DNA of 64,000 nt from Phycomyces nitens (Eukaryota; Mucoromycota; Mucoromycetes; Mucorales; Phycomycetaceae). The stretch lies in assembly GCA_022702545.1 (NCBI GenBank), contig JAHRBC010000005.1, positions 2,914,001 through 2,978,000 on the forward strand. Direction: 5' to 3'. This document shows, one piece after another, positions 7,731-58,980 of the stretch. How positions within the stretch are numbered: position 1 is the stretch's first letter; each line of letters starts with the position of its first letter. The translations under genes were made by a program, and so were the position numbers. The notes below the pieces were generated by a model that was given only the letters and a program-made list of their open reading frames with translations, searched no databases and was not told the origin of the DNA.

Positions 7731-9171
7731 CACTGCAAAAATGACCCCAATTTTCATATGTGAAATAAAGTAGGATTCTGAGAAATAGTGACAATAAAAC
7801 CTGGGTTCCGATGAAAATTTATCTGAGCTACAGATACATGGGCACATATGGAATGAATTGTTTCCTTCGGCAGACAGAATAGTCTGTGCGTGGACAATGG
7901 TTTCTTTAGTTACCATGAACCCAGAAAACTCAATTAGGATCAATATTTCTTTATATTTCCGATTGTGATCAGTCTATTTCTATTTAAAAGACAGTGTTTT
8001 TGAAAGGTCTTTCGTCTGTCGGCAGTGTGGAGTGTCACTGCCTACCACTGTATGGCAGTTTCTATTGGATATCATATTATGTATTCTATTGATATTTCTT
8101 GATATAATTGTCCAGAACCATTTTCTCGAGCTTCTTTAAAAGAACAATTTATGGGAAATAGTTTATGAAAAAAATTTATTTGATAAAAAATATTTATTTT
8201 CTAGTTGGATTGCCTAGTTATCTATTCAAAGCATGGGCTATTCATATATTAACATTATGGATTACCTTTTACAAATGCAATTGAAATGAGCAAAAACAAT
8301 TTACAGCAATTGAATATGAAATGGGAATACTACTTGGATATATAATGTGAATCTCTATACTGAAAACAAAACATTGATTAGGTTTATGTATTATGTCTTT
8401 TACCATTAGAGAGAGAGAAAACTTACTTGAGGCAGATTCAGCATACTTGGTACTGAATTGAAAACAACAAAGATGTTAATAATGTATTATGAATAGAGAA
8501 TATAACAGAGAAGTTATACTTATAATACACTCGCAAAAAGTATGACTAATATTTAAATATAATATTGCAAGATCTATGAGAGTAAGATAATAGAATATGA
8601 GTGTTAGTCTACATGGGGTTATAGTGTTATTGATTATATATACCATATTATATACTGCTATGGTTCTCAGCCGTGTAAAGTGCGCAGTATCTATAATTTA
8701 TAAATGTTTAGTAAGAAAATGAATATTTGTATGGGTCAATCTTTATCTTACCAGTGAGATAAGTTGCGGTATATTTAATACTATTAGTAGTTAAGCAATA
8801 TCATTTAGTAAAAGTAAAAGTAAAAATAAAAGGAAAAAGACTTACTTGGATATTTAACTTAAAAAAAAAAGAACAAATGAGTAAGCAAAGAGGAAAAGGC
8901 AAATGGAACCGAAAGAGTGGTTTAAATTGTAAAACAAAATAAAAAATATCCTAAAAGAAAAATCATTGAGTCCAAAACCAAATCACAAAACTCATATTCA
9001 TATTACGCTTTCACAAATCATTTATAGCTATAAAAGATGAATATCGAATTCATTATTATATTCTTCATATCACTTAAAGAAATCTTTATTACTTACTGTG
9101 AACTATATTGTATGTATATCTCTTTACTTGTATAATCCTTAATAGTATTTAACTAATTTTGCCTATAGAAA
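7731..9171. other. Noncoding left arm of copy A
   Basis: About 1.44 kb without a supportable gene. It contains AT-rich sequence and a short run of AGTAAA/AAATAA units near 8805-8835. Copies B, C and D have similarly long left arms (1.5-1.7 kb) and short right arms (about 230-580 bp). It presumably holds the promoter of the partner gene and binding sites for element proteins, though I could not define a repeated motif. Confidence 0.6.
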
Positions 9172-10387
9172 ATGCCTCCCAATTCTACCAGATCAAGAGC
9201 AAATCGAGAGGCCAGTTCTTCTCAGCAGGTGACAGCTGGTCGTATTGAGCGACACCAACTTGGCCCAAGCATACCTCTAAGCAACAATAGGGACCAGCAG
9301 TTTAAAGATCTTTTTGATGAGGTAAAGACTGTCCAGGTTGAAATTGCAACTGTCAACCGAAGACTTGGCATGTTGTTTGATACAAACAAAGAGACCAAGA
9401 CAGCCGTTAGCAATTTGGCCAATGCTCATGCCAATAGTGAGGCTCGTATGGCATCATTTGTCCCAATTGCAATGGCTCCTGCTGTTGTATCTGAGAAATC
9501 TATCAGTGTCAGCGATACTGGTAGAATTATCCTGGTATGTTTAACTCAAATTATATATATAGACTAACCAAATTATATCCAGGGCCTCATTAAAGGCAAG
9601 ATGTGAAAGAAGAACTTGGATTCAGATAACCCGGGTGTGATTGCTGAAAACAACAGCAGAAAAAGATGGAATGAGAACAAGCAGATTAATCATCCTGATA
9701 ATGTCGCAATCATCAGTTACTTGAAGGAGTATATTCTTTCACAGCCTGAAGCTTCTGGGTTTTGGCCTGATACGGTGGTAAATAAGATCAAGAACAATTA
9801 CAAGCATTCCCACCGTAAAGCTTGTATGATACCCGAACAAGATGAGGCCAAAAAGCAAAAAGGCCGATCTAACAGCAGGATTGCTGAGGTTTGTACAAAA
9901 TGATTGATTTAAAATATTTTCAGTTTTCTCATATTATATTACATATAGATCCTCCGGCGTCGAATTGCAACATACAAGAGCAACTGGAGGGTGATTGACG
10001 AAGACATGGGGGATAAGCCAGGCAACGCAGCTGAGATGGCTTATCTCCATGTTCTTAAAAAAGAAGTGATGTCAGATGGGGAGTCAGAGACAGAGGAGTT
10101 GGAGCCCGATTACAAGGTGCGTGTGTTGAATGTTGCTCGGCTGAGATGGAGAAGTGATGAGGTAAATATCTAAAGTATATACTTGTAAAACAAGGATGCT
10201 AATAAAGGGAATATAGCTCAACAGACTCATGTCAGTCATTGATCGAGTTGCAAGAGTCTGTGACTCGGCAAAATTCCAGTCCAAGGCAAAGCCAAGAATG
10301 CCAAGGAGACAAAAAACAGAGAATCTTGTTCCCATCCCCTCTCACTTGTGTTCCTCTCTCCCTTCTTGGGCATTTAGAGATGAATAA
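9172..10387 (+). pseudogene. Element partner protein, copy A (four exons, one nonsense codon)
   Basis: Exons 9172-9534, 9583-9888, 9949-10161 and 10217-10387, all with GT-AG introns in phase 0; total 1,053 nt. Exon 2 is 306 nt as in copies B, C and D. The exon 1 product begins polar and contains a likely coiled coil (FDEVKTVQVEIATVNRRL). Exon 3 ends with an acidic stretch around MSDGESETEE followed by a RLRWRSDE box matching RPSWRSDE of the other copies. A TGA at 9604-9606 near the start of exon 2 replaces a Trp present in copy C (FMWNP), so this allele is probably broken unless splicing avoids it. I do not recognise the domain. It is an unknown accessory protein, perhaps the functional counterpart of TnpA of plant CACTA elements. 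Confidence 0.75.
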
Positions 10388-10516
10388 AACATTTTCGTAA
10401 ATGACAAACGACTTATTTTTGGATTAATATAGAATATATAATGGGGTTAGATAAAAGTAAAAGTAAAAGTAAAAGGAAATAAAAATAAAAATAAAAATAA
10501 AAATAAAAATAATAAA
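10388..10516. terminator. Convergent gene end with A/T simple repeats
   Basis: The 129 bp between the partner gene and the transposase end contains an AAAAGT run and then an AAAAT run (about 10451-10512). Similar short gaps with simple repeats or AATAAA-like sequence separate the convergent genes in copies B, C and D. It could serve as polyadenylation signal for both strands. This is inferred from position and composition only. Confidence 0.4.
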
Positions 10517-13500
10517 TTAATAAGAGATCTTTCTGGGAAGAGGGACTACAAGTCTTTTTCTAATATCTCCGGTTGTTTTGTACTCCATGATTGCAACAGA
10601 CATTAGGATACGATGTACTGGGAGGATACACTCGAAATCAAGAGGGTAGAAGGCATCTTCAACAATCTCAATTCCCTCAAATTCTCTACTCCTGTCTGAT
10701 GTAGTTTTGAACCACTTTACGAAAGCAAAGGTATGCTGACTATTGTGGACATTTTCATGGTGCAGAGAAGAAACAACAGGGCTAAATGTATGAATAAATA
10801 GGTATTGAATCTCTCCAACATACGCGTACTCTACTCCAGTCTTGTTTTCAATAAAAATCGCTTGAATATACGATCCACGATTCTCTTTGCCATTGATGCC
10901 CTTGAATGTCTGGCCTAGGAGATTAACTGACTTCAGCTTTTCAAACCAGTCATTCACAAAAGCCGTGCCTTGCATTGTGTCTTTGCAGCTACGGATCTCA
11001 TTGTCGTTATATGCAACCTGGTAGTACTCAACCAAGCAATCATATTCTTCCTTTGGAATCATTGCTTTTGATCGCTTTTGCTGCATAGTTATAGGTAATG
11101 GAAGGGGCTCATTGCCTTGGACAGGTATATGTGGATTGTCAGCTGATTCAAGGAAGTCTGGGAGCGAGAATTGAATTTGAGTGTTTTGGACAGTTATTGT
11201 TGAATGCTTTTGATGGTCTGCATTTGTCAACTTGTACAAAATGTCGGCACAGGGAAAACTTGGTTGGTGCTTCAAAATTGTATGGACATGATCGTTCTTA
11301 TAGGTCTCTTCCAGGAATTGTCTCATGTAGGTTGATTCGAACCCACTTCGCCTGTTTGTGTCTATGTTTTTTAAGATACTGTTGTACCTTTCGAAGCTAA
11401 AGAGCCAGTAACCATAGAACGGTCCAAAGTCATTGATTGTCTGGCGAAGGTGGAGGTGGAGGTGCATGTTTGGGGACAGAAGACTATGATCGTAAATCTC
11501 CTCGCATCCTTTACAGAACAGCTCAAGAGATGTGTGGCCTTGCTCGATCTCATTGTCAGAAACACTGGGCTTGGTAAGTAGACGGCATGCATTGACGAAA
11601 TGCATCCAGTTTGAGAAGTGAAGGTCTGGAATTACGCCCTTTAACGCCACTGGAGAATAAACCAGGCACCACGATTTCCACTCGTCTGCCTTCATAAATG
11701 GAAACCCTTTTCCAATCTTCGTCTTAATCTGGGTATAATCGGCCGGCAACACCATCTTCTCCACCATCTTCTGCATGGCAACGAGACTCTTATCATTGAT
11801 TACTCCATCTGCAACCCATCTCTCCATCATCCTCTTGGCAGTGCCTAAGAAAAGATTATGCATTGGATCGATGATCGTGCAGCGGACAACATCAAAGTAC
11901 TGGAGACGATGCAGTTCGGACCAGCGAACACCACTGGCAACTTCAAGGCGCTGCCTCTCAGCTTGAGTGGGTGCATTTCTCCAGACCTCAGCATCCTTAC
12001 GATTATCATCTCTAGTGCGAAGGAGCCACTTTGAAGAATCAAATCCAGAATAATCAACAGAGTTCGTTCCAGCTAACCGATTGAACCGATGATTGCATTT
12101 GTGGCAGGCGTTTGTACTCATATGGGACGTAAATCCACATACTTTCCTTGCAGCGGGGATGTCACAAGCGACCAGAAAGAGAGCGGCACGGACGGTTGCA
12201 CCAGATGGGTATTGATGGGTCTTGATTTTGATACCCTGGTATAGCTCTTCCAATTCGTCTACAAGAGGTCTGAGATAATTGTTGATCTCTGATGTCTTCG
12301 CTTCTCTTGGCCCTGGCATTAATCCAACAAGGATAATGTTCTCCTTCTTGAACCGGATATCTCGAGGAAGATTGTTAATGGCAAGGTATATGGCTCCACA
12401 AGAATATGTGACTCCATCGAATGGCTGGAACCAGTCAATGTTGAGGGTCAACATTAATGAACGGTCACTGTCAACAAAGGGAATGCCATTTATATCCAAT
12501 ACTTCATTCCACATTGCACCGTCGTATACATCGAACATCATGTCCTTTGCCTTTGGACCACGATTCCACGAACTGATATCATCTTCAAACTCAGGGCGGC
12601 CAAAGAACAGCTCCAGTGATTTCTTGATGGAGTGAAACACGTACATTTTCTTTGGGATCCTAGATCCAGATCCGGACTTGAACAACGGAGTTCCACACAA
12701 GGAGTTTTTTCCAAACTTGTCAAACAAGCAGCAAGAAGGAGTGGAGTCATCGTTCTCATAAATGCTATGGCATTCACCACAAGCAACATACTTCTTTACA
12801 CCATTTGACAAGACGTCAAGACCAGCCAATCGTCTGAGGCCTTGAACACTCACAGGAAGACGGAATGGGTCGCAAAAGAATTCCAAGACCTTGTTCACAA
12901 TTGCAATTAAGACTACGGCACCTCCGTTAACAACATATAATGATATGAAGATGGCAATTGTAGTAACAATGAATCGGTGAATGAAACCTAATTCTGAGAC
13001 AGATTCTGAAAAATAGTCTATTTAAAATGAAAATATTATTAATCCATTATTTTCGTTTCAGGACAAGTATTATATTTAGTACTGTACATACCTTCATCAT
13101 CAACAATCTCATCGTCACTTGAATCATTGCCATCTGATTCATCAGAAGCAGAGCAATTGTCATCCTCATCATCAAACAAAGTGTTGTTCTCAGAAAGAGG
13201 TAAGGTTCCTTTCTGAGATTGAGTGTCAGCATTGGTGCTGTCAACCGAATCTACTAAAAAGGAATATTATTATTAAACTCAAATTAACAATCAAAAATAA
13301 TGTCTTTACCATTGAGATCATAATCCATATCATTGTCAGGACTACGGATATCAATCAATTCTTCATCTTGAGCTGTATCCATGGATACAGTGTTTTCAAC
13401 AGATTGCCTGGCCTCTATAATAAATTTATTATTATCTGAAATATAAATAAATATAATTATAATCTCTTACGTTTTTGTGCATTTAAAATGCTTTGTGTTT

Positions 13501-13621
13501 CTTCATTTTTCATTTGACGTTTGAAGGTCTGAATAGGTACCACGTCGTAGCCACCATGCTTCTTTTCGCAAACAGAGCATCTGCATTCTTTTGTAACTTT
13601 TGAGTTGCGGATTGGGGCCAT
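10517..13621 (-). CDS. CACTA/Plavaka-like transposase, copy A (968 aa, apparently intact)
   Basis: Exons 13621-13471, 13414-13310, 13253-13092 and 13005-10517, all introns phase 1. The N-terminus has a small Cys cluster (CRCSVC) followed by an acidic Ser/Asp-rich linker made by exons 2 and 3. Exon 4 starts with a conserved hydrophobic segment (IAIFISLYVVNGGAVVLI), then a zinc-ribbon-like region (CGECH ... CC ... C). Core motifs follow in order: LNIDWFQPFDGVTYSCGAIY, PGPREAKTSEINNYLRPL, a CDIPAARK-type block, CGFTSHMSTNACHKC, IDPMHNLFLGTAKR, SPNMHLHLHLRQTI and YGYWLFSFERYN. These match the Tnp2/Plavaka group of cut-and-paste transposases. The Asp residues in IDWFQPF and IDPMHN are catalytic candidates, by inference. 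It has no frame break and is convergent with the partner gene. Confidence 0.88.
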
Positions 13622-15854
13622 TTTTAATAAAATATTTGCGTTTGGTTTAGCAGTAAAAGAGAGAAGTTCAAGGCACAGCTCATTTTATTTATTTCTGAGT
13701 TGATAATGCTTTTTTATTTCTACACCGCCCATCAGAACCAATGAAACTGTCTAATAATTATTCAAGTACTTAATTTACAAAAACTGTCTGAATTACAATT
13801 TTATGTTTTCTGTGTCCTGGAATTCCCAGTTGCTGTATATATGAAAATTGAGGTCATTTTTGCAGTGGTTATGGTTTGGGGATGTTTCTTTGGGAAGGGT
13901 GTCGGAGATTTAAAATTCGTGCTAGGGAAGATTGATTCCAAGAAGTATATCCAGACTTTAGAAGAAGGATATCTTCCCTCCCTTGCTAGATTTAAGGAAA
14001 AATCAAGTTGGAGATGGTTCAGACTACAAGAGGACAATGCCAGCTGTCATGTGAGCAAGATGACTATGGCATGGAAGCAGCAGCACAGGCTGAAACTTTT
14101 GCCTGACTGGCCAGCCCAAAGCCCTGATCTCAATCCAATTGAGCACCTTTGGGACTATCTTGGAAAGAGAATCAGGTCCAGAAGATATAACTTATACAGT
14201 TTATATCATATCAGACATGCTTTGGAGAGAGAATGGAGGTGTATTCCAAAGGAATATTTGGAAAGCCTAATTTCCAGTATGCATAAAAGATGCCAGACAG
14301 TCATAGATGCCAAAGGTGGTCCAACAAAGTATTAATAAATAATCAATATTATTATATATTTTGAAAGAAAACAATTCTTTTTATTCACTCTGAGTTTTCT
14401 ATACTCATTACATTATTTTTTTCCATCTTTTTTGATGTATGAATGTGAGGTTTTTTTTGTGAAGTTTTGTGGGCTATAAAAAGTTTCTTTAATTTCTCCC
14501 ACTCAGTGTAGAGCAAGACAAGGCTGAAGACAAACTGCTCATTTGTTTGCACCATGATTCCAGAGCTTATGCATTGCATACCTGACAGATGCCTTTGGAG
14601 ATCTCCTTATTAGACAATGATACTTGCAAGTCATTGTTCAGATTTACATACACTGAGATTCAGCTGATAGCAAGAGTGTTGGGCTTCCCTGAGCAGGTTT
14701 CTTTCTGCAATGGAACAAGCCAAAACTTCTCATTGCACAGAGATCTATCACTTTCTATCATGCTTAGAAGGTTTTCATATCCTTTGAGGCTGATGGACTT
14801 GGCTTTATTGTTTAAGATGAATAAGACAACAATTAGTGTTGTCTTCAATTCTATGATTGGATTGCTGTATAGCCAGTACCATGAAGGGATCAGATTCAAC
14901 AAAAGGCATCTGCATCCCTTTAATCTTGCAAGATTTTCTGATGCCACAGAAAGAAAAGTTAAGTAATTGATTTTGCAAAAGATACTTGATAATAGTGCCA
15001 TCTCTAATTATGTATCTTTTATCAAGGATCTTGCTACAAAGGGGTCATTGGATTCATCAACGATATGCTGAATGGCATAGCACATCCAGTCAGGCACCAG
15101 GAGCATGTCTACAATGGCCATGTTGTATGTATCCTAAATAACTATATAAAACTTCAGGACTTCAATTGTTAAACTCTGTGATTATTTAGCAATACCATGG
15201 TCTGAAATATCAAGGTATCATAATACCAGATGACATAACAGCCAGCCTGAGTAGACCTTTTGCAGGATCTGTCCACAACCAGAGTATGCTGGTGGACAGC
15301 GGCATGATTGGTGAACTCCAGGAAAGTTTGGACAAGAGAGGCAATAGTAAATAACTGTATGCTATTTATGGCAATCCTGCATACAGTTCTTCCGACATTC
15401 TCATCAAGCCTTTCTGGAATAGTAAGTTTTTAATTAATTCTTATATAGTAAATGTATTAATCTTTTCCATTACAGGCCAGGCAATGCCTAGGGTTGAGAA
15501 AGACATCAACAACACGATATCTACTTTCAGGATTGTGGTTGAATGGGAGTTTGGCCATGTTGCCAATTTGTTTGCCTTTGTCCAGTATAGACCAGGGCAA
15601 AAGGCATTGCTGAGCAAGTATGCTCATTTTTATTTGGTTGCTACACTGATGAAAAACATACACATTTGTGTTAGTGGTGGGCAAACATCAAAACACTTTG
15701 ATATTAGCCTACCATCACTTCAAGAGTATATTTCTGAGATAATACCATAATAAAAATAATACCTTTAAACATACTGTATACTTATAACATGTATTTATTT
15801 ATTGTTTTTGCATCTAGCACTAGGGGGAGAGGATGTTGACTGGTGAGAAGGCAT

Positions 15855-17537: not shown

Positions 17538-18378
17538 CACTGGAAAAATATACGCAAATCATAGAAATAACAGGTGTTGGTTATTGGGATATTATGTAAC
17601 ATAATAATACTTGACAGCATAATATTATAGAATACCTAGCTGACATAATATTGGATTTTTGCCCAAATGGTATTGATTACTTTGTCATTATGAAAGGGAG
17701 CTTAGGTACATTATCTGTGTGCAAACCTTAATTGAAAGCCAAGTATCTGTAAAATTACAAATATAGATTACTAAAAAACCCCATTTATAAACCACCTGGA
17801 TTTGAGAGGGCTGTTATTTTTTCAATACTAGGTGGTTTTGGCTGCCTATTGATTCATTCTATTGGATCAATTGCTTCAACAATATCTGGTATTGATTAGA
17901 TTTTTAAAAAAACACATTTGATATTGATTTTGTTTTGGTAGGATATAATAATTTTATATATTTTATTATAATATTTTTATTTGTAAAAGCACTAGCAATA
18001 ATATAATCTCTTGCTCTGGACTACATGGTCTTATTCTAATAATACGTCTAATGGTTCTTGCAGACCATATTTTATTTCCTACTTGAAAAACATAGATTCC
18101 GATTATATTTACCTGACCAAGTTTTATAGTCTAGCAATAGAATAAAAGAGCACATTTTAGATTTTTTGTTATAGCATTTTATAGAGTTGAAAGGCAAGGT
18201 ACTTACTTGGCAATTGGGTATTTCATTAAATTAAAGAAACCAGAGTATACTGATATAAACAAGCCAGTATATATTCATATGCTTGTAATAACGGATACAT
18301 TTGGGCATGGATATACTATAATTAATATTAGAAAAATATTTTTAACAAGAGAAATAGTTCAAAATACATACCTTTGGC
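17538..18378 (+). repeat. Long inverted repeat, left arm
   Basis: About 840 bp, near-identical in inverse orientation to 24018-24855 with scattered substitutions. The outer end is the CACTGGAAAAA terminus. The inner end is CATACCTTT at about 18378, the point where the right arm also stops (AAAGGTATG at 24018). Confidence 0.88.
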
Positions 18379-19057
18379 AGTTGAATAAATGGATATTTGG
18401 TTTACTAAGAGTATACAACGTAAACTGCAATCATGTTAGAGCAATGTCTTTTTTATAAATGAGAAAGTAAAGAAAGGAAGAAATACATACATAGGTGCAA
18501 TAATAACTTTTTTGATAAACATGGATTATAAAATGATATCATGGCAAGTCGCGGCTATTTGAAAATATTATGGTAAGAGACATGACCAACGTGTAAAGAA
18601 TGTGATTGATAGTAATTACCTTTTGTATAAAAGAAATCTGATGTTTGGCACCCTATGTGTATATAATGTAAGGTGCGAGAATTTTAGGTGATATACTTAC
18701 ATAGTGTTAAAGAGCAGAAAAAGGATAAAAGAATAAAAAATAAAAATTACGATTAAAATATCTATGCCCCCTGAAATATGCATGGACATTCTCTCTTGCT
18801 TTGAAATCGGAGAGTCATGTTAATTATACATTGAAAGTGCCCAAGAAAAAGGTTTTGGTCTATATATTAATAGGAATTTGACTCCGTCTTGGTTTATAGA
18901 CAAAGTATAATAGAGTCTCTTATATTCTTATTAATATCTACATATACTTCTTTACTCTTTCAATAACTCTAACCACCATCTTCTTTATCATGTAAGTTCA
19001 TAATGGGCTATCAAAATATATTATATATGCTGATTTATTTATTGAATAATTAAGAAA

Positions 19058-20227
19058 ATGGCACCAAGAATCAATACCACCAGAAATGCATCTGCAAATG
19101 GATCAATGTCCAGACCATTGATTAATACTGTCAGCAATGGCCATGTAGGACCTGTTCGTCCTTCTCTTGTTCCTAGACAAGATGTTGTTGGGGTTTCCAG
19201 AGAGGAATTTGATAACATAGTCAACCTCTTGTCCACCTTGGACAAAAAAATGACAACTATGTGCAATGATATTGGCACACTCAAGGATAGTGGAAGCAAA
19301 ATGATGGCTTCCGTGGATGGTCTTGTCTTTGATGCAATGAAGAGACAAGAAGCTCCTCAGTTGGCCAGTCCACAGGCTATCCAGAGTATTAATTTTGAGA
19401 TCCAACTGCGAGATGTTGTTGGCAATAGCAGAAATCCAAAGATCTCAGTAAATATTAAAAGTAAACACTGCTTGAATCATTATTAATCAATATAAACTAG
19501 AAACTCATTCGTGATTGCCTCAGAAACATGAATCTCAACACTGATGATCCCCAAACAATAAGTGAGAATGATGCAAAGATGACTTGGGATGTCAGTGTTG
19601 GGTTGTCTGATAAGGTCAACAAGAATGTGGCAGATGACTTGTTGGTGTATCTGCATGGCCAGAGTGAGTCTGCCTTTGTTCCAACAAAAGAATTATGTGG
19701 TATGATAGTAAACAACTATTACAACTGCATGGCCAACAGCAAGCTCTCGTTGGAAGGCAAACTAGCAAAAAAAGAGGCAAACAGAAGAGGCAATTGCAAG
19801 ACAGATGTAGGTGGCTCTATAAAAATAAGAGAAACATAAATATATTTATTATTATATTTTTTAGCTCTTCAAGAGACAGAAGAGAACATTTGCCAAACAC
19901 AAGGCCACCTCCATCAAAAAGTTTGGGAGAGACTACAGTGGCGTCTTTTATAAAGATGTCATGTCTGATGATGAAAGTGATACAGACACAACTGTAACAG
20001 TGCTTCGCCCAAGCTGGCAAAGTGATGAGGTAGCTATAACATATATTTCCACTTTTATTATATGTTTAACAAAGAAAATATTTTGATAGTTGAATGAGTT
20101 CTTTGACTTTCTTGATACTCTTGCAATAAGTGATTTGGGAAAGAGAGCAGGCCAGCTGAAGGCTTGCCATCACGTAGTTGTATCAAAAGCAATTCCTCGT
20201 GGCTTAGTAGCCAAAATGCCCACGTAG
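19058..20227 (+). CDS. Element partner protein, copy B (four exons, 332 aa)
   Basis: Exons 19058-19447, 19501-19806, 19865-20029 and 20090-20227, all phase 0; 999 nt with no internal stop. Exon 2 is again exactly 306 nt and starts KLIRDCLRNMNL, matching KLINGYIKHPNF of copy D. The exon 1 product is Asn/Ser-rich at the start and then has a coiled-coil-like segment (FDNIVNLLSTLDKKMTTM). Exon 3 contains DVMSDDESDTD followed by LRPSWQSDE. Exon 4 adds a short basic tail. The exon 2 donor is weak (GTAGGT). The gene looks intact although its transposase neighbour is not. Function unknown. Confidence 0.72.
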
Positions 20228-20334
20228 ACAAAACGTGAATAAACAATTACTTGCATCTCTCATTCCTATACGTTTATTAATATTGTTTTGAATACACAAG
20301 TATTGTATGTTTTATATAAGATAGTGAAAGATAA

Positions 20335-20361
20335 TAATAATAATAATAATAATAATAATAG
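20335..20361. repeat. (AAT)n simple repeat in the convergent gap of copy B
   Basis: About nine AAT units between the two convergent genes. The position matches the simple repeats in copy A at 10451-10512. Confidence 0.85.
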
Positions 20362-20376
20362 AAAAGAAAAAGAAGT

Positions 20377-23300: not shown

Positions 23301-23785
23301 TCTTCCTCGGCATCTTCATCAGACAATTAATGCTCAGATGAATATTCTTCAATGAGCTCATCTGTTCCAAAAAGAAAATCTTCGGCCGAAAGAGGTAAGA
23401 ACCCATTGGGATATTCTATGGATGACGGTACATCATTAGAGTAACTGTCATCTATTAAAACCGAGTATAAGTAAAGTGTATATTGAGTATAAAAAATAAA
23501 ATACTATGTACATTCAATGTCCTCTTCAAATTCAAATGCTTCCATGTCCACATCAACACTGCTTTGTTAGACGGGCAAGACTATTTAAAATATTATTAAT
23601 ATTACAGCCCACACTATATAATAGCCATTTTATTTGTGATTGATATTTCTATCCAATTCTCTCTCTTTGTCACTCTGAGCATGATGCTTGGCAGTTCTTT
23701 TGGCAGTGATCATGTAGCCAGCAGGATTGCAAACGCATTTTGAGCATCGGCATTCAACTTCATTAGCATTGGGAATGGCAAACAT
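20377..23785 (-). pseudogene. CACTA/Plavaka-like transposase, copy B, inactivated
   Basis: Homologous throughout to copies A, C and D: N-terminal CRCSKC cluster from 23785, acidic exons (23561-23512, 23451-23281), main exon from 23206. Damage: the first-exon donor GT is missing near 23635; TAA at 23327-23329; TAG at 22701-22703 where the others have Trp (YDGxxW); TAG at 22221-22223 where copy A has Trp; TGA at 21828-21830; and a 342-bp insertion at 21226-21567. Apart from these the frame is continuous, and removal of the insertion restores it exactly. Motifs retained include FQPFDGVTYSCGAIY, PGPKEASTAEINNYLRPL, CGFTSHNSRNTCHKC, VDSMHNLFLGMAK (Pro to Ser in the usual DPMHNLFLG) and YGYWLFSFEHYNG. 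Confidence 0.9.
21226..21567. mobile_element. 342-bp MITE-like insertion in the copy B transposase
   Basis: It interrupts the transposase between YNGLV and KDFNTN. It is flanked by the 5-bp direct repeat ACAAG (21221-21225 and 21568-21572). The ends form an imperfect inverted repeat of about 14 bp (TGTGATATTTGGTA on the left, TGTTGTATTTGACA from the right). Removing 342 bp plus one ACAAG restores the reading frame to match copies A, C and D. It has no coding capacity and is AT-rich. The superfamily is not determined. Confidence 0.85.
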
Positions 23786-24017
23786 TTTTTAAGGTTTATA
23801 TCAAAAGAGAATATATAACAGCAGTAGTTTATTGCCCGTTCCTTTATAGTTTTATTATTACTTTCAGGTACTCCGTAATCTATCTAACCAATAAGATATG
23901 CTTATATCTGTCAATGATACTAACCAAAGGATTTTCCCTGAGTTGCAATTTTTCATATACTGTTATTGATAATAACACCCCACAATTAATCATTGATTTA
24001 ACACCATTTTTGCAGTG

Positions 24018-37640: not shown

Positions 37641-37710
37641 GCAATAGCTACACTACTAAATGCTTCATAGTAATGCCATAATGATGTCTAAGAGACTTAC
37701 CTACAGTACA

Positions 37711-40597: not shown

Positions 40598-40722
40598 TAA
40601 AATATTTTTTTTATCTATCCATCTATTTTTTTGACACGCATTACGTTTTGACAACATTTATAAAGGCAATGCTATTTCTGTTTGTTTTTTTTTATGAAAG
40701 AGAAAAGATATTTATTTATTTA

Positions 40723-43700: not shown

Positions 43701-43828
43701 TCTTCAAATCTTGCTCTTTTGGCATGACGCTGGGAAGTGCGCTTGGATACAATAGAGAATCCTTGCTGGTTGTTGTTGCATTTGTTGCAGTAACAGGCAG
43801 TGTTGTTAAGAGCGGAAATAGAAGACAT
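40723..43828 (-). CDS. CACTA/Plavaka-like transposase, copy C (966 aa, intact)
   Basis: Exons 43828-43681, 43610-43575, 43512-43309 and 43235-40723, all introns phase 1. The N-terminus contains CYCNKC; exon 3 encodes a strongly acidic linker (DDSDNDSDDEADDEE). The main exon has the conserved hydrophobic block (AIFVVLFASRYVVDKGAVVL), zinc-ribbon-like Cys residues (VCQDC ... C ... C), LNIDWFQPFDGISHSSGAIY, PGPKEPRSEEINNYLKPL, SGFTSHNSTHACYKC, IDPMHNLFLGTAKR, KGFPHMKADEWKSW, CNMHLHLHLRETI and YGYWLFGFERYNGLL. A proline-alanine stretch near the C-terminal third (SPPAPAPAP) is a linker. No inactivating change is seen. Its partner is the convergent gene 126 bp away. Confidence 0.9.
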
Positions 43829-44073
43829 TGTTTATATGATTCGATTGTGAGATAAAAAAGGAAACAAGTGCTACATATTTTAATTTGCTGTCATTTTATA
43901 GATGAAAAAAAAGCTATTGTTTTTTAATCTTTTGCCTGAACCAATAGGATGGATTAGAATTACACTTTTTATTTGAAGTAAAAAAAATATCTGAGATGAA
44001 AAAAAGCTCTATATTTCCACTACCCTTTTGCCACATTGATACAATGCTAAATTTGGGAGTTTTTCCAGTGACA

Positions 44074-48485: not shown

Positions 48486-51042
48486 ATGTCTTCATCTAAT
48501 ACCAACCAATCGAGAGACAAAATGTCTATGCTGACATATCAGTGTGCTCAGTGTGTCTTGACTTTCAATAGTTACCAGCATCTGAAAAACCACAGTAGAC
48601 TTCACCAATGTTTGTCTGAAGATATTGAAATGCAGGATAATGATGAATATATGGGTGACTCAGGTAATAATAATAATAAAAAATCATATTCACTGATTCA
48701 CAAACACTTGTTCAAAATAATACCTACATTTTCTACAGATATCATGGAAGCTGATGAAAGCCTTTCATACAAATGTGGCTGTACTTTTGATGCCACTGAG
48801 AGTAGAGCGCACATATACAATAGTGAGAAAATTGGGCTCAATACCTTCACCAAAGCTGAACTATTGAGTATCCATCTCTCTCACTTGGTGGTCCAGCATA
48901 AAATAGCTAGGGCAGCCTACAGAGACATTGTTAGGTTTGCTAACACACTCATTCGGGATCATGATGAGATCATGCTGGGTAAATGATATTACTTACTGTT
49001 ATTTTACTTAACAATTACTGACATAAATTATATCATTCATTTTCTTTTTAGAGCCTGGAGCCAAGATTAGACATGGTGAAGGAGTAGATGTTCTGCTCAA
49101 GAAGAAGTCGGATCTGGAGGGCCATGACTATGATGTGTGCCCATCAGGTTGTAGACTATACGGCATGGCTGATGGGAAATATGAATGTTCCAATTGTGGT
49201 GAGGCACGCTACAAGATGGAAACCGAGTTGGTGAAGGCACCAGTTGCCCAAATGAAGCTTTTGTCCATTGGGGACATCATATCCAAGATGTTGGCCGATC
49301 CAGATACCCGAGAGCTCCTACAATACAGAGCCAACAGAGAATCACATGCTGGCGAAATCAATGATATTTTTGATGGCAAAAATTATAAGCAGCTCGTAAG
49401 ACAAGGCATGTTTGCCAATCCCAATGATATTGCCTTGGGCATATATACCGATGGTTTTGTCAACCAGAAAAAAGGCAAAGCCTCATATACCATCATTCAT
49501 TTAATCATTTTCAACATCGATCCATCCATAAGGTAATTAATATTTTAAACAAACAAAATACTAATTAAAAGCTTAGATATACCACCCCATACCTCATACA
49601 ACTCGCCATTTTGCCTGGTCCTAAAAAACCATCCAATTTGGATTCATTTTTAATACCCATAATAAATGAGCTAAAGGACCTTGAAGTTCATGGCCTCATT
49701 GTAAAGCACAATGGGGCTGAGATATGCCAATCAAAGGTCCACTTGCTGTTGGCGTCTGGTGATATCCCTGCAGTTGCAGACATGGCCCATCTTGGGTCAC
49801 ACAACAGTTTGTTTGGTTGCCGCATTTGCGAGACCAAAGGAAAGCCAGCGGATAACAGAAGGCATGGAGTATACTTTGATGACAGCTCTGCTCCTCTAAG
49901 ACCTGTTGAAGATTTTTATACCAGCAACCCTGTAAGTATATGAATATTCAATTAATCATTCTTTTTATACTAAATACTTATGTATAATAGATCAAAAACA
50001 TATACCAGCCAAGTCTCTTTGCCAAACTGTCGACCTTCTCTGGCTCTTCATTTTTTGCATTGGACGAACTGCATTTGATTGCAAGAGGAATTGGCCATCA
50101 CCTCTTTGAACTTATATCTGTCGCTCACTCTAAAGACACCAAATTTTACTATACCCAAGAAGACAATACCCAGTCAGCAGACAATTACCCATTTTATATA
50201 CCCAGATCTGACTTGAAGACCATTGGAAACTGCATTTCCAACTCCAGGCAGTTTATACCCATTTCATTCCAAGGCAGCTTCGACAACATCTTCCAGAAAA
50301 TCGATGGCACTCGTGCAGTAGATTGGCTTGATTTCCTTCTATACATTATACCCACAGTTGTCGTCCCCTATTTACCAAGCAGGGCTGCCAAAAATGCCGT
50401 CTTGTCCTTGGTAAAAGGGTGTGCACTTGCCTTACAGTGGTCACTCACATATACCCTGATCGACGAAATGGAAAGGTATGTCAAACAAAAGTGAATCATT
50501 ACTTTTATTTAACATTTATTATTACCTTTTTTTTCAATAGACATTTCAAAGACTGGCATGCATTCCTATTATACCAAGTTCATCAAAAGACACTATCTTG
50601 TAGTGTCTTCCGACCAGTCCAGCATTATCTCATCCATATACCCCATATCATAAGACGCCAGGGCCCTCTAAGGAGTTATTCTACCAGATCAATAGAGAGG
50701 GTCATTGGCGTCTATTCCAAGCTCATTAGGTCAAAGTCCAAAGGCAGGCGAAATGCCAGCTTACTCGTAGAACGATTTGCAATCCACAGATATATCCATA
50801 CAGCCATCGATCTTCATAACCATACCAGCATCATTCATCCTCATACCTACAATGAATCAAGTTTCATAAATATACCCAACGATGAAAGTGGTGCCCAGCT
50901 ATGGGAACCATTTCATCATAATACCCAGTTGCTTGATGATACCATTGAAGGCATAAGCAGCAACATTGTGAGAAATGCGTTGCTCAGATATTATACCCGA
51001 AATACCACCACATATACCACCACTGGAAAAAGTATACGATTT

Positions 51043-51119
51043 TATGGTGGAGAAATATCTGTAGTATTAAAGTACCATCATCGATTTATTGTTATTTCAA
51101 TCTATATTTCTCCACCATA
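51043..51119. repeat. Subterminal hairpin of copy D
   Basis: A perfect 16-bp inverted repeat, TATGGTGGAGAAATAT at 51043-51058 and its complement at 51104-51119, separated by 45 bp, starts 22 bp inside the left terminus. Confidence 0.85.
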
Positions 51120-51360
51120 CAAATATGAATGATACTATAGGGAATGACGCCTGGTCTATCAGAGAAATAGGTCTTTAGTTCCGCTTGAAAAACCTTTGAT
51201 ACCCCCCAACTTTTCTGTTATTAAAGAGGTCTAGTTTATTTTATATTTCGTGTCGAGTAAGCCTATTATTTATTGTATTTTGTGCCATATAAAGCTAATC
51301 GCAATATCGCGATTTACAATCTATTCATATCCTTTACTTTTAACCTCAGTAACTCATCTC

Positions 51361-51510
51361 TTTAGGCTGAAAAGCAAAGGGAAATAGTGTCTTTAGACTG
51401 AAAATCAAAGGGAAATAATGTCTTTAGACTGAAAAGCAAAGGGAAATAATGTCTTTTAGACTGAAAAGCAAAGGGAAATAATGTCTTTTAGACTGAAAAG
51501 CACCATATCA
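51361..51510. repeat. Tandem repeat, 31-32-bp unit, about 4.5 copies
   Basis: Units of the type CTTTAGACTGAAAAGCAAAGG plus GAAATAATGT, nearly identical; the last unit is truncated at AAAAGCACC. It lies in the left arm of copy D and is a candidate protein-binding array. It is not evident in the left arms of A or C. Confidence 0.92.
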
Positions 51511-52608
51511 TACGTTTACATACAAGCCTCATTTGTTGATTTTTAAAAAATAAATTGTTTTTTATTTATTTTTTATTTATTTAATATATATATTTCTAGA
51601 TGAATGCTCTAATCATATAATAATAATATATATGCTATTTCTAGAGTATTGTTTGATATTTTGCATCTAGCAAGACCAACAAGTTCCTACCTGATAGATA
51701 TTGGGTACTGTCTTGGAGAAGAATGGTGCTATTTAATAGTAATAGGAGCAAAGATTAATTAAATAATCGTAGTGGATCAAATTATTTGCTGTTGTACTTA
51801 CAATGTTGATATCGTGAGTAGATGGACTACTTGATAGATTCATGAGAATATCTCAGCATATTAGCTGTCAGTTGAGATTGTCTAAGAATTGTAAAGTTAT
51901 TAGTATTCTAGATATTCATATATACTATATTATCAGCGGTTTTCTTACCTGTGTGATTGTTTGTTCAGGCATGCGGATGAGATTCTTAATATATCTAATA
52001 GAGAATAGAACATAGTTATATATGTATAAGTAAAGAGATATATATAATTTGTAATAATATAATAGCTTACCATGATGTTTGATTACAAGATTGAGTGACA
52101 TGCAAAGCCGTGATGACTGGAGGCATCAAGTCATTAGTAAAGAGAAGCTTTGAGCAAATATTATTTTATGTTATTAAACCATGTAAAATGACCAAAGAGA
52201 AGAAGCTTGTTGATGATCTGTAAAGATAATGGCAAAATTTTTAAGTAATTACATAAAATAATAAGAATAAAATAATTACCAGTATGTGTATAAGAGCAAG
52301 AGGCAAAAGAGAAAGAACAAAAAATAATTTGAGTTCCAAGGTGGTTTACCCCTAAAAAAAGTGCAGTCTCTAAAATCAATAATCCCAAAAACATAATATA
52401 ATTGTCATTTTCATTTTACAGTTAGACGCTTTATTTAATCAATAAAAGACACTAATTAGTTTTAAGCAAGTCATTGTAAAATATGATTATATATTGTAGA
52501 ATAAACATCAGTAACAGTTCATTATACTTCTTTACTTGTAAGAAACATTATAATATCATAAAGATAAAATATTAATAATTGTCATTTAAACATTTATTCA
52601 TATAGAAA

Positions 52609-53848
52609 ATGAACAACTTTGACATCTCCAAAATCTCTACCAGTAGTCCTATCTATGCATCTATTATGCGTAGTGCTATGGCTAATGTCCAGAACAGTGA
52701 ACTTACCACTGCATCTACTTCGGCCACTGTAACAGCAGAAGAGACATCCAATTACCAGGATGATAATGAAATCCGTAGCTTGCTAAACTCGGCAAATATC
52801 AAGATGGATTCTCTTGAAAATCAAAACAAGACAATTGCAAGTGAAGTGGGTGATTGCAAGACGTCAATTTCGCAGCTTGAGAAGGTCATTGATAGACTTG
52901 TCACTGGCCAAATCAGCATCAAGGATATTTTGTCTGGTGGAAATACTCCTGCAAGAACGATTGCAGTGGCCAGTTTGGTACCTCGGGGTGAGGAACCCTA
53001 TGTTGTTGGAAAGAGATATCCAAAGATCTCAGTAAGTCTTGACTAGACATAAAATCAATAAGAAGAGTATCTAAAACCAATTTATAGAAATTAATCAATG
53101 GCTATATCAAGCACCCAAACTTCACCAGTGACAACCCTGTCAAGATAATGGAGAATGATGCCAAGCAAGGGTGGTCCTTGACTAGCTACTACAACAGTAG
53201 CTATAACAATGCACTGGCCATAAGGCTGATCACCTACTTGGGAAGACAAGAGGCAGGAAAGGCGATCCCTTTGAATGATCTTGCCAAAATGGTAAAAAAC
53301 CATTTTGTCAACCAGGTGCGCCAGCGCCAGCGAACCCCAGAGGCTGCAGACAGAAAAAGACTTGCATGCAGAAGACGACAGCGAACTGTTACGGTAAGTT
53401 TATATTTTAATCAATATAAAACTGTTATTTTCTTACACACTTAATATACAGATTCTTCGTCGCCGAATCAAGGCATACAACAAGTACAGAGACCAGATTG
53501 ACAGAGAGATGGGCAGAAAAAATTGCGACCATGCCCTCCAAAAGGAAACCATGTCTGAAGATGAGACTGATGGAGAAGATAAGGTAAAGGCCTTTCGCCC
53601 TAGCTGGAGAAGTGACGAGGTAATTATTTTAGCATAGTTTTTCATATTAAAATTCTATATCTTTTATTAATACACCTTATTATATTCAATAGCTCCAGAC
53701 TTTTATAGATCTTGTTGATGATTTTGCTTCCCAGTCACTAAAGAAAAAGGGAAGCTCCATTTTGAAACGCGTCCGAGTAGTTCGTCAAAAGGATGTACCA
53801 AAGGATTTAGCAGTCCCATTGGCCGTGTGGACAATAAATAATAAATAA
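52609..53848 (+). CDS. Element partner protein, copy D (four exons, 350 aa, intact)
   Basis: Exons 52609-53031, 53088-53393, 53452-53619 and 53693-53848; 423, 306, 168 and 156 nt, all phase 0 with GT-AG introns. The exon 1 product is Ser/Thr-rich and then has a coiled coil (IKMDSLENQNKTIASEVGD). Exon 2 begins KLINGYIKHPNF and ends in a strongly basic run (RKRLACRRRQRTVT). Exon 3 starts ILRRRIKAYNKYRDQIDREMG, carries ETMSEDETDGED, and ends FRPSWRSDE. Exon 4 is short and basic. The same ILRRRI start is found in copy A exon 3. No defects. The family is not recognised. Confidence 0.82.
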
Positions 53849-53933
53849 ACTATCTATTTTATGTTTTATATTTTTTGGCTATCTTTTGCTGCAGATACTT
53901 TTGTGAGATAAGGATAGGTAAAGATATTTATTT

Positions 53934-56900
53934 TTAAGCATATATTTTTCTAAGAACAGGAGCAACAATCATCTTAACATTTCCTGTCTCAGTTGTATGC
54001 TCACCAATGGCAACCGACAGCAAGATTCGGTGCACTGGCAAGATATTTTGATAATCCCCTCGGGCAAAGGCAAACTCATTCAACTCTATCCCTTCATCAC
54101 TTCTTGTGTTCAGACCAGATGACCTATACCATTTGACATAAGCAAAGGTATGATTGTCAGGTTGAAGAGTCTGGGGATTCACAAGCGAGTTGACAAACAA
54201 ATACTGAATCTGACCAGTAAAGGCACTTATACCACGGTCATTGTTCTCTTGGAAGATTGCCTGTATATATGACCCGCGGCGAACTGCACCATTGCTCCCT
54301 TTGTATATCTGGCCAAGCAAGTTGATCGATGGGAACTTCTGGATCATATTGTTGACAAAGACATTGCCGAACAAAGCTTGCTGGTAACTGCGAAGAGAAT
54401 CATCGTCATAGGAGTCTCTGTAGAACTCAAGAAGATGCTCATACTCTTCTTCTACCATTCGTTCATATTGCCCTAGGGAAAGTGGGAAGGCCGACGAAGG
54501 AAGAGGTTCATTGCCTTTGATGTTGACAGTACTGAACTGCGCGGAATCAAGAAAGACTTTTAGGTCAAACCTAGGAGAAGCAACTTGGAAATATGGGGCA
54601 GTGGTGACAGTGGTGGTTGCAGTGGACGCATGGACAATTGGAGCAGGAGGAGGAGTAAACTCGACGAGTTCAGAAAGCAATGCAATATACGATGCATTTC
54701 CAATTACGGCCATCATTCTACAAGCAATATCAACCTTGCAAGAGTCCTCAAGATATTTTCGCATGAACGTGGCCTCAAAGCCGTCTCTCTTGTTTGTCGT
54801 GTAGTTCTTCAGTACACCATTGTACCTCTCGAAGCTGAAAAGCCAATAGCCGTATACTGGCCCAAAGTTGACGATCGTCTCATGAAGATGCAGATGTAGA
54901 TGCATGTTAGGTGAGATAAAATCTGCACCATACAAGTTCTGACATCCTTGTCCAAACAACTCCAAACAGAAATGGGCTTCAGCTAACTCGTCTTCTGATA
55001 TGCTGGGCTTGGACAAGTATCGGCAGGCGTTGACGAAGCACATCCAATTGTCAAGATTGTCCCTTGGCAACCGGTCTTTCAAGAGGACAGGCGAGTATAC
55101 CAGGCACCAGGACTTCCATTCGTCGGCCTTCATGAATGGGAAGTCCTTGCCAATCTTCTTCTTGAGGGTGCTCATATCTGGGGGAAGGACCATATTGTCA
55201 GCCTCTTGTTGCATATCGGCCAAGTCTCTGTTGGTGATCAGACCAGCTGATCTCCACTTCTCCATCACTCGCTTCGAGGTTCCCAAGAAGAGGTTATGCA
55301 TCGGGTCAATGATGGTGCACTCGACTACATTAAAGTACTCAAGATTGTGGAGTTCCGACCAGCGGACTCCATTCTCCTTTTCCATCCTCTTTTGGTCTGC
55401 CTCACTCGATGCACGCTTCCAGGCCAGGGCATCACGACGATTATCTGCTTCGGTTCGAGGCACCCACTCAGAAAAGACAAAACCAGAATAATCAACACCG
55501 CCATTCCCTGGGAGATGGGAGAACTGGCGATTGCACTTGTGGCAGGCATTGGTGCTCATGTGGGACGTGAATCCGCATGTCTTGCGAGCAGCAGGAATGT
55601 CGCAGGCAACAAGGAAAAGAGCAGCACGGACAAGAGCACCAGAAGGACAGCGCACAGTAGGGATCACCACACCCACATACAAGGATTGGAGCTCGGCAAC
55701 AAGAGGACGGAGGTAGTGATTGATCTCACTGGTCTTGGCTTCTTTTGGGCCAGGCATGAGGCCAACAAGAATGGTGTTCTCCTTCTTGTATCGTTCGTCT
55801 CGTGGCAAGTTGTTTATGGACATGTAGATTGCCCCACAAGAGTAAGTAACCCCATCAAAAGGTTGAAACCAATCGATGTTTAGAGTCAACATGATTGATC
55901 GTTCATGAGCCACGAATTGCTGACCATTGCTGTCTTCCAGATTGCTCCACTTGGCACCATCATAGACATCAAACATCATGCCTGCAACTTGCTGTCTATG
56001 TCTCCAGTGATTGATACTGCTTTCGAATCCAGGGCGACAGAAGAGAACGGACAAGGCAGAAATCAAGGAGTTGTACATATACACCTTCTTTGGCAGTGCT
56101 ACGTTTCTCGAAGGCTTGAAGAGATCAGCGCCACATATACCGCCAGAAAGTCTTCTGAAGTTGCAGCACTGGGGAACACCGTCAAACTCCATGTATGTCT
56201 TGTGGCACTCGCCACACACCACGTAGCGCTGGACACCTTTGCAGACTTGGTTGAATCCTGTCATGGAGGAAAGACCACTCAAACTCAATGGCAGATGGAA
56301 TGATTCGCCAAAGTGCGCCAAAACCTCATTGAGGAACTTGATCAAAATTGCTCCTCCAGAGTTTACAACATATTTTGATATGAAAAAGGTGGCAAAGGCA
56401 GCAATGAAAGCATGGGTGTTATCCGCTGGCATGTTGGAGGATGAGAATTGTTCTATTTGGGTTTTGTATATTAATATATGATATCTATGTTTTTCTTGTA
56501 CTTTTACTAACCTTCAAATTCTTCAGCTTCATATTCAGAGCCTTCCATTGTATCAAGCTCAATGATATCCTCATCTTCATTTTCAGCTATAAACAAAAAT
56601 TGGTAACAGACACAGGTAAGTTTTCCATTGTTTTTTTTTTTGGAGCAAAAAAGTAAATATTCAAGTGGCTGCAATTTATTATGCAATTTGAATAGAATTT
56701 TATACTTACATTCAACATGAGCATCAACATCATGGACCTCGGCATCAATCTCCATGTTATTGTCATTCTCCATCTGAATTGCTTCAGCTGACAATGCTAT
56801 ATTTTTTAAAATGTTTAATTACACTTTGAAATGCGAACAAATTATATATATATTACTTACAAGAAGCTGTCTGCATAAAATGTCTGACAAGATCGTTATC

Positions 56901-57005
56901 AGCATGTCTTCGTGCTGTTTGGGCAGATACTGCTACAAATCCTTGGACATCGAGAGAGCAGACTGAGCACTGGCATTGAACTTCGTTATTGAAAGTGTTG
57001 TACAT
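53934..57005 (-). CDS. CACTA/Plavaka-like transposase, copy D (941 aa, intact)
   Basis: Exons 57005-56861, 56796-56710, 56586-56512 and 56452-53934, introns phase 1. The N-terminus has CQCSVC; exons 2-3 encode an acidic linker (ENEDEDIIELDTMEGSEYEA). The main exon: hydrophobic block (FATFFISKYVVNSGGAIL), Cys-rich region (CGECH ... CC ... CGADLF), LNIDWFQPFDGVTYSCGAIY, PGPKEAKTSEINHYLRPL, CGFTSHMSTNACHKC, IDPMHNLFLGTSKR, KDFPFMKADEWKSW, SPNMHLHLHLHETI and YGYWLFSFERYNGVL. It ends in a conserved domain with INLLGQIYKGSNGAVRRGSYIQAIF and NILPVHRILLSV, shared by all copies. The stop at 53934 lies 85 bp from the end of the convergent partner gene. Appears functional in sequence. Confidence 0.9.
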
Positions 57006-58140
57006 ATTGTTTAAAGAGGTTATAGGATTGATATAAAGAAAAGTGGTTCAGGAACATAGTTTATTTTGCTTGTTTTATAGTTCAGGAACCATTTACATTA
57101 CGTACATGCCGTTATTATAAATATTAACAAATTCACTTAATGATTGTATTTGGAAATTGACATTATTTCATTTTAAATATATGACTATATACCAAGTAGT
57201 TGTTTTGTATATACATCTTTTAATAATATGATATCATGTCTATTTCTCCAACTCTTCATTAACCAAAGTACATCGTCATTAAAATATACTTTAACTAAAT
57301 ATATATTTCAAGTAGTCTCAGCTGCACACTCTTGCCCATATTTGATAATTTATTTTCAACATCCCCAAGAATATTAATTTCGCGACCTTCAAAAGACAGA
57401 GAAAATATCGTAGTTGAATAATCAACAAAAATAAAGACATATTCTAATGTCCATCCAATAGAACTACCAAATATTCTTAACGCCGTCTAAAGTGAGCAAT
57501 CAAGAAAAGGGCTAATCCAAGACCTATACTCCCCTCGTTTCAATTGATGTATTCAGAGTTGAAATCGGGTATTTTTTGCAGTGCACTGAGCTCGCTGACT
57601 CATCAATTGTTGTTGCTTCCCGCCTTTTGAAAGACTCTACAGTGTACTCTTCATCCATATACCGAAAAATGAAAAACGAGACCAGCCGCGGTAACCATCA
57701 TATCATGTTTACTTGTACATATAAAAAGTAAGTATTGGTATTAGTCGAAATACAAAGTAGAGATTGCTCACATTCTTAAATCTTCATCTAGTCATCGCAA
57801 TATACCCATCCAAAGCTGGCTCGTTGGCACTGTAGAGTTTTATTTTCAGCATAAAGATACCCATGGCATAACCCACTTTTTGGCATTTGTTGATGTCATG
57901 AAAGAGCATACCACAGCGGCACATGACTTTTCTGTCCCGATTGTAAAGAAGAGACCAACTGATACCCTGCATGGACATATACCCTCACCAACTTTCGCCG
58001 TCATCAACGTAGATGACATCATCCATCAAGTTGGTCTCATTCAATACCCACCAAACAGCAATCAATTTTTTGTGATTGCACCATATTTTGTTTTTAATAC
58101 CAACTTACGTATTACCAAGGGTAACCTATCAATCCTATAA

Positions 58141-58941: not shown

Positions 58942-58980
58942 TTTTTTACTGTGAATTGTATTTTTATAATTCTTTCAACT

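What the first reader, a model, noticed from the sequence alone, without database searches (positions are those of the whole stretch)
7731..57583. A five-member, two-gene CACTA-like family with a conserved but unrecognised partner protein
Copies A, B, C and D each carry a transposase and a convergent four-exon gene. The partner proteins diverge strongly in sequence, yet exon 2 is exactly 306 nt in all four, every intron is phase 0, and the acidic MS(D/E)-E(S/T) patch followed by R(P/L)xWxS(D/N)E persists. Conservation of architecture over divergent copies implies selection on the partner during transposition. The ends are CACTG(C/G)AAAAA with 3-bp duplications. The combination of Plavaka/Tnp2-like transposase with this partner is the best candidate for an undescribed system here. 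The role as an end-binding TnpA analogue is inference.
Basis: partly seen in the sequence, partly recalled or inferred. Interest (0 to 1): 0.9.

Follow-up and report, generated by a model that had tools for sequence, protein, structure and literature searches.

The report
Two-gene CACTA transposon with partner protein
A large clan of jumping DNA elements carries, besides the usual cutting enzyme, a second gene whose protein matched no known family in the searches made, yet keeps its exon layout and changes in step with the enzyme, so it is probably a working part of the jumping machinery.

Summary
The core observation holds. Copies A, C and D are complete elements with CACTG(C/G)AAAAA ends and 3-bp duplications; B has both ends but no duplication and a broken transposase. 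There is no fifth two-gene copy, only a terminal fragment. All four carry a minus-strand transposase and a convergent four-exon partner with phase-0 introns and a 306-nt exon 2 (A's has an in-frame stop).

In the window's own unnamed 49-Mb genome the transposase motif occurs 660 times. Of 94 motif copies on contig C1, 74 have a convergent partner, 2 are truncated copies without one, 18 are undecided. Over 17 copies (16 families) partner and transposase identities correlate (r 0.85; 0 of 5000 permutations reach it). Exon 2 aligns over 102 residues without gaps and is under purifying selection in the comparable pairs; one outgroup has 267 nt.

Termini, duplications and Pfam say CACTA/EnSpm, not Plavaka. 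The partner is basic, with a heptad-rich N-terminus and a predicted five-helix domain; no credible Pfam or PDB match. A TnpA-like end-binding role is the best guess, unproven; dense TnpA-type repeats were not found. Other fungi could not be searched. One intact, single-copy partner gene stands without a transposase.

The parts
7731..13867 (.). Element A, 6137 bp, duplication GTT, inserted in a Tc1/mariner-like frame
   Evidence: ends and flanks; flanks read as one frame by eye, DDE_3 hit in 13745-14335
9172..9534 (+). A partner exon 1
9583..9888 (+). A partner exon 2, 306 nt, in-frame TGA
9949..10161 (+). A partner exon 3
10217..10387 (+). A partner exon 4
10517..13021 (-). A transposase main frame, open, 834 aa (further 5' exons not modelled)
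   Evidence: (Transposase_21 4.1e-19)
17538..24017 (.). Element B, both ends, no matching duplication
19058..19447 (+). B partner exon 1
19501..19806 (+). B partner exon 2, 306 nt
19865..20029 (+). B partner exon 3
20090..20227 (+). B partner exon 4, ends five residues early against L026
20377..23225 (-). B transposase, broken into several frames
24018..24857 (.). Inverted 98% copy of B's left arm, abutting B's right end
37711..44070 (.). Element C, 6360 bp, duplication ACA
39406..39753 (+). C partner exon 1
39817..40122 (+). C partner exon 2, 306 nt, predicted five-helix domain
40183..40368 (+). C partner exon 3
40436..40597 (+). C partner exon 4
40723..43242 (-). C transposase main frame, open, 839 aa
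   Evidence: (Transposase_21 2.6e-19)
51021..57583 (.). Element D, 6563 bp, duplication CAC
51367..51480 (+). D, four copies of a 20-nt motif about 31 nt apart, left side only
52609..53031 (+). D partner exon 1
53088..53393 (+). D partner exon 2, 306 nt, predicted five-helix domain
53452..53619 (+). D partner exon 3
53693..53848 (+). D partner exon 4 with stop
   Evidence: open frame to 53845; the model typed ended at 53841
53934..56513 (-). D transposase main frame, open, 859 aa
   Evidence: (Transposase_21 2.2e-15)

Best explanation
These are cut-and-paste CACTA/EnSpm elements that encode two co-evolving proteins: a DDE transposase of the Transposase_21 kind and a basic accessory protein. 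The accessory protein most likely oligomerises through its heptad-rich N-terminus, binds DNA in the terminal region of its own element through the 102-residue helical domain of exon 2, and contacts the transposase (or a host factor) through the segment MSDxE ... RPxWRSDE. Shown: ends and duplications, convergent two-gene layout, co-divergence of the two proteins, purifying selection, domain layout, and a short derivative without either gene. Inferred: DNA binding, oligomerisation, contact with the transposase, and need for transposition. It would work like plant TNPA or TNP1 without being a detectable homologue of them.
For: Complete elements with both genes and 3-bp duplications. Partner beside 74 of 94 motif copies on C1, 2 truncated copies without it, 18 undecided, and within 3.2 kb of 50 of 58 B- and D-type motif copies genome-wide. 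Identities of the two proteins correlate over 17 copies, r 0.850, 0 of 5000 permutations. dN/dS 0.21-0.42 for exon 2 in seven readable between-family pairs. Basic exon 2 (+4 to +15 in 10 of 12) and heptad windows reached by at most 6 of 200 shuffles in 12 of 12 proteins. Five helices predicted for two sequences 25% alike. L039, a 2.3-kb D derivative without either gene, has TTA on both sides. Swapped left arms end 330-410 nt from the left tip, leaving the outer left end with the protein pair.
Against: No DNA-binding fold recognised. No dense repeat arrays at both ends as in plant CACTA: top 9-mer counts 2-4 in 14 elements against shuffle maxima 3-5; D and L017 exceed their shuffles by one, on one side only. 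Exon 2 of B and L022 is near neutral. The right ends of L011 and C are about 80% alike up to roughly the last 50 nt, so only part of the ends is family-specific. Solitary partner copies exist. No transcript or binding data.
Confidence: 0.58

Rival explanations
1. The partner is a regulator or anti-silencing factor: it acts on the upstream arm or on host chromatin to control expression of the element and is not part of the cutting complex.
For: The upstream left arm (from 330-410 nt inwards to the partner start) is shared at 90-97% between families whose proteins differ widely, which fits a common control region; acidic patch and basic domain also suit a transcription factor. Plant TNPA itself also has regulatory roles (PMC1636069, PMC2613891, passages).
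Against: A regulator of a shared promoter need not diverge in step with the transposase, but the partner does.
Confidence: 0.27
2. The partner is a passenger: a host-derived gene caught early by the ancestor and carried along without a role in transposition, perhaps useful to the host.
For: An intact solitary copy at C8:2604520 and no recognised function.
Against: Constraint and co-divergence with the transposase in 16 families; no family was shown to lack it.
Confidence: 0.1
3. The four-exon gene model is an artefact of picking splice signals that suit the eye.
For: No transcripts; exon ends were chosen by similarity and nearest AG and GT.
Against: In 22 of 27 copies with an exon-2 hit the automatic search returned in-phase AG and GT exactly 306 nt apart; the others are L021, L026 and L028 (damaged), A (306 by hand, with a stop) and L009 (267). 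Selection and the empty reversed control also speak against it.
Confidence: 0.02

Closest known systems
Fungal 'TRC' CACTA elements of DeMarco et al. 2006 (PMC1636069, passages read)
   Same: Transposase_21 enzyme with the I/L/V-D-x-M/L-H-xxx-L-G motif, here DPMHNLFLG; Rhizopus oryzae is among the fungal sources named.
   Different: In the passages read the fungal elements have no second protein; the authors found no relative of the Schistosoma second protein in fungal elements. Here a second protein is found in every family modelled.
Fungal EnSpm and Plavaka as defined by Kojima 2025 (PMC12730594, abstract and passages read)
   Same: EnSpm: CAC..GTG ends, 3-bp duplications; C(2)C and H(3-4)H between second D and last E.
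   Different: PlavakaA has TGT..ACA with 2 bp, PlavakaB CATCA..TGATG with 2-3 bp; neither fits. The passages deal with TET/JBP cargo, not with this partner.
Plant En/Spm TNPA and Tam1 TNP1 (PMC2613891 and PMC1636069, passages read)
   Same: A second element-encoded protein beside a Transposase_21 enzyme; such proteins differ widely between families.
   Different: TNPA comes from alternative splicing of the transposase unit and binds dense subterminal repeats; here the gene is separate and convergent and such repeats were not found; no sequence relation in the Pfam scan.
Plant CACTA ORF2 (PMC4158355 and PMC8978399, passages read)
   Same: Second ORF of unclear or supporting function.
   Different: The passages read do not state its orientation; no Pfam model linked to it matched the partner.

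Membership tests
CACTA/EnSpm | Ends beginning CAC(T) and closing (A)GTG | tested here: met
   A-D CACTG; L024 CACTA; 10 of 20 fetched loci show paired CACT ends, 10 were not resolved
CACTA/EnSpm | 3-bp target duplication | tested here: met
   A, C, D of four in the window; 8 of 20 loci, where an equal flank also entered the score; B, L012 and L027 lack it
CACTA/EnSpm | Transposase_21 transposase above the curated cut-off | tested here: met
   A 69.1, C 69.7, D 56.9 bits against 28.6
CACTA/EnSpm | C(2)C and H(3-4)H between second D and last E | tested here: met
   all six motifs in order in the three open window transposases; which D and E are catalytic is my reading
CACTA/EnSpm | Dense direct and inverted repeats inside both ends (plant members) | tested here: not met
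   exact 9-mers only, 14 elements; degenerate motifs would be missed; this is a plant trait, not one that decides the superfamily
Plavaka | Ends TGT..ACA or CATCA..TGATG | tested here: not met
   ends are CACT..AGTG; Plavaka ends from PMC12730594
Plavaka | PF18759 match | tested here: not met
   only D, 13.1 bits against 26.3
TNPA/TNP1 protein family | Sequence homology | tested here: not met
   no such Pfam model among hits of the four partners up to E 5
TNPA/TNP1 protein family | Binds element ends and is required for transposition | not testable with these tools
   needs experiment
BEN domain (idea from recall) | Pfam or fold match of exon 2 | tested here: inconclusive
   no hit in Pfam or among listed folds

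The most novel reading that the evidence does not exclude
The partner is a so far unnamed protein family that forms an obligatory second subunit of the transposition complex of these CACTA elements, recognises the family-specific outer left end, arose independently of plant TNPA, and has at least once (C8:2604520) been left behind as a host gene kept under selection.
Probability: 0.27. Interest if true: 0.75.

Novelty: new variant of a known kind. Interest (0 to 1): 0.57.

Why it matters
Plant CACTA elements need two proteins. For CACTA elements outside plants the second protein has been unclear: the one known from Schistosoma had no detectable relative in fungal elements (PMC1636069, passages read). 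A partner found in 16 compared families of one genome, with both main frames open in C and D, makes the question 'what is the TnpA of non-plant CACTA elements' directly testable. With up to 660 motif copies of about 6.3 kb the clan could make up some 4 of 49 Mb (upper estimate, inference).

Tried and rejected
Fifth member: partner and transposase profiles over the whole window found partner exons only in A-D. The Tnp2-like frames at 44901-47963 and 48465-49940 are distant (Transposase_21 below cut-off) and have no partner exon near.

BEN domain for exon 2 (from recall): no support. A conserved protein gene in the left arm: tblastx similarity occurs in all frames, so it looks like shared DNA, not coding. 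L034 as an orphan: by eye an L015-family copy cut by a retrotransposon. Viral contigs: 45 stretches matched the peptide patterns, none confirmed. Rfam: no match in the window. My own misreadings, mended on recount: the partner exons in L019 and L040 belong to neighbouring copies, so the motif copies at C1:445677 and C1:9585800 are truncated copies without their own partner; my notebook says 20 of 20 and '16 at 1.67-1.73 kb', which should be 19 of 20 and 15.

Print: nine paper searches and passages of seven papers named no such partner for fungal CACTA elements. The library holds open-licence papers only; PMC5751038 is not held. From recall, unchecked: hypothetical proteins with a similar acidic-plus-WRS motif may occur near transposons of basidiomycetes.
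Full report
Observation. The ends CACTGSAAAAA occur ten times in the window against 0.27 expected. Eight pair into A 7731-13867, B 17538-24017, C 37711-44070 and D 51021-57583. A, C and D have 3-bp duplications GTT, ACA and CAC; B has none. A interrupts a Tc1/mariner-like frame; by eye the flanks read on across the junction (DDE_3 hit). Each copy has a minus-strand transposase and a convergent plus-strand gene of four exons: 363/306/213/171 nt (A), 390/306/165/138 (B), 348/306/186/162 (C), 423/306/168/156 (D; the last exon was typed short, its frame is open to 53845). Introns are phase 0 and GT..AG. A's partner has an in-frame TGA; B's transposase is in pieces and its partner stops five residues before that of L026; C and D are open in partner and main transposase frame. 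The fifth member was not found; the extra end at 24845 closes an inverted 98% copy of B's left arm.

Genome. The window is C7:2914001-2978000 of an unnamed 49-Mb, 11-contig genome. The DPMHNLFLG pattern has 660 matches and a narrow partner pattern 143, with 0 for each reversed control (listings are capped at 100 rows). I fetched 20 C1 loci chosen to span nucleotide variants of the motif, not at random. Partner exons on the opposite strand lie in all 20, weak in L009 (two exons) and L010 (one). In L019 they belong to a neighbouring copy; the motif copy itself is cut off after about residue 648. So 19 of 20 have a partner of their own. A further locus, L040, showed that the motif copy C1:9585800 is likewise cut off and that the partner exons there belong to its neighbour.

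With six exon-2 searches (listings capped), 70 of the 94 C1 motif copies have a convergent exon 2 within 3.2 kb. Four more were seen in fetched loci (L009, L010, L012, L025): 74 of 94. Two are the truncated copies just named; 18 are undecided, several of them from families with cut listings. Among the motif copies without a listed partner at the first count, two had an exon 2 near in a non-convergent layout, each belonging to a neighbour. For the B- and D-type motifs genome-wide, 50 of 58 have a B/D exon 2 convergent within 3.2 kb; four have one 4.4-8.2 kb away, one has an exon 2 of another family at 1.9 kb, and three have none listed within 10 kb (an earlier count with a wider limit and fewer lists gave 47 of 58).

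Partner first. Of 20 partner-pattern hits on C1, 18 have a convergent motif within 5 kb, 15 of them at 1.67-1.73 kb. The other two were fetched: L029 keeps the end of a transposase and L030 keeps its end, with a second fragment in the other orientation. Of 91 exon-2 places on C1, 21 have no intact motif convergent within 3.2 kb. I looked at five of these: the two just named; 6218116, whose motif lies 4.4 kb away; and 723951 and 6627644, with no transposase match in the roughly 0.4 kb after the partner. The copy at 723951 is open in exons 2 and 3 with a frame slip in exon 4; that at 6627644 is decayed. Sixteen were not opened. Three other singleton-like places elsewhere (L035, L036, L037) have transposase beside them and L034 is interrupted by a retrotransposon. 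At C8:2604520 an intact four-exon partner stands alone: no transposase match and no CACT end of the searched form in 10 kb. Only itself matches fully; the nearest element family is 62-64% identical in exon 2. Against L016 pS is 0.76 and pN 0.19. That fits an exapted host gene, or a copy left by a lost family.

Conservation. Automatic modelling returned exactly 306 nt in 22 of 27 copies with an exon-2 hit (L010 gave no hit). Exceptions: L021, L026, L028 damaged; A, 306 by hand with its stop; L009, 267 nt. Thirteen partners share I3, N23, W29, N40, M136, S137, E140, P152, W154, S156, D167 and P194. Readable between-family dN/dS for exon 2: C/L024b 0.23, C/L018 0.34, C/L012 0.21, C/L013 0.30, L011/L013 0.31, L020/L027 0.21, C/L025 0.42. 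Transposase pairs: 0.09 (L011/L013) and 0.12 (L013/C). The same table holds other values, from 0.19 up to 1.3, for pairs that are close relatives, saturated, or damaged; near-identical pairs (L014/L030, L030/D, L017/L019) lie at 0.8-1.3 on few changes, and the L017/L019 transposases at 1.5. Across 17 copies of 16 families partner identity (mean 0.34) and transposase identity (mean 0.55) correlate at r 0.850; 0 of 5000 permutations reach it. I left out L009, L012, L014, L019, L026 and L028 by hand; L010, L029, L030, L031 and L024b lacked one of the two proteins or were excluded in the script.

Ends. Eight of 20 loci show paired CACT ends with equal 3-bp flanks (the flank entered the score), two show ends without, ten were not resolved. 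D's left end occurs 70 times with up to 3 mismatches. L039, one of these, is a 2.3-kb derivative with neither gene and TTA on both sides, so its ends were moved by proteins from elsewhere (inference for the last step). Left arms were exchanged between families: L011 and C are 92-97% alike from about 500 to 1750 nt, L025 and L017 90-98% from about 500 to 2250 nt, while the outer 250 nt of the left end are at 50-53% and most coding windows at 51-84% (shared parts begin at 333-411 nt). The right ends of L011 and C stay near 80% up to about the last 50 nt. So the outer left end, but not the upstream arm, stays with the protein pair; this fits recognition there and does not prove it.

Mechanism. 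Shown: two co-evolving genes inside a cut-and-paste element. Inferred: the partner oligomerises, binds the terminal region and recruits or positions the transposase, as TNPA does in Spm. Against it: no dense repeats inside the ends. Main rival: a regulator acting through the exchangeable upstream arm.

Known kinds. Ends, duplications, Transposase_21 and the C(2)C and H(3-4)H motifs make this CACTA/EnSpm in the terms of PMC12730594, not Plavaka. The DPMHNLFLG motif is that described for fungal TRC elements in PMC1636069, whose passages give no fungal second protein. Hence a new variant of a known kind: the element class is known; the partner family is, as far as I could search, undescribed. The homologue search in other organisms could not be made; that is the main gap.

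Noticed in passing
L031 with L032 and L033 (G000:C8:2600300-2610300): Intact, single-copy four-exon partner gene without transposase or element ends, between a helicase-like and a zinc-finger-like frame (named by eye); candidate exapted gene.
   Followed up: partly
L011 against element C; L025 against L017, left arms: Upstream arms 90-98% alike between families whose proteins are only about half identical: exchange of a regulatory module that stops 330-410 nt from the left end.
   Followed up: partly
Left arms of 14 elements: ACTTAC (a donor-like site on the minus strand) lies 646-776 nt from the left end in 13 of 14 elements, several of them related (no shuffle control). A minus-strand spliced non-coding transcript is possible; tblastx gave no sign of coding.
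   Followed up: partly
window 24018-24857: Inverted 98% copy of B's left arm with two bases of B's left flank, directly abutting B's right end; perhaps aberrant transposition or repair.
   Followed up: partly
L039 (G000:C7:2993100-2996500): 2.3-kb D derivative lacking both genes, TTA on both sides, keeping 1462 nt on the left and 252 nt on the right plus a foreign piece.
   Followed up: partly
window 44901-47963 and 48465-49940: Distant Tnp2-like frames (Transposase_21 below cut-off, one with a weak C2H2 finger upstream) without partner exons.
   Followed up: partly
window 771-4784 and 58933-62916: Two retrotransposon-like regions with protease, reverse transcriptase and integrase-like frames, named by eye.
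   Followed up: no
window 29520-30257 and 32943-33572: Frames with sub-threshold FAR1-like and OTU/otubain-like Pfam similarity.
   Followed up: no
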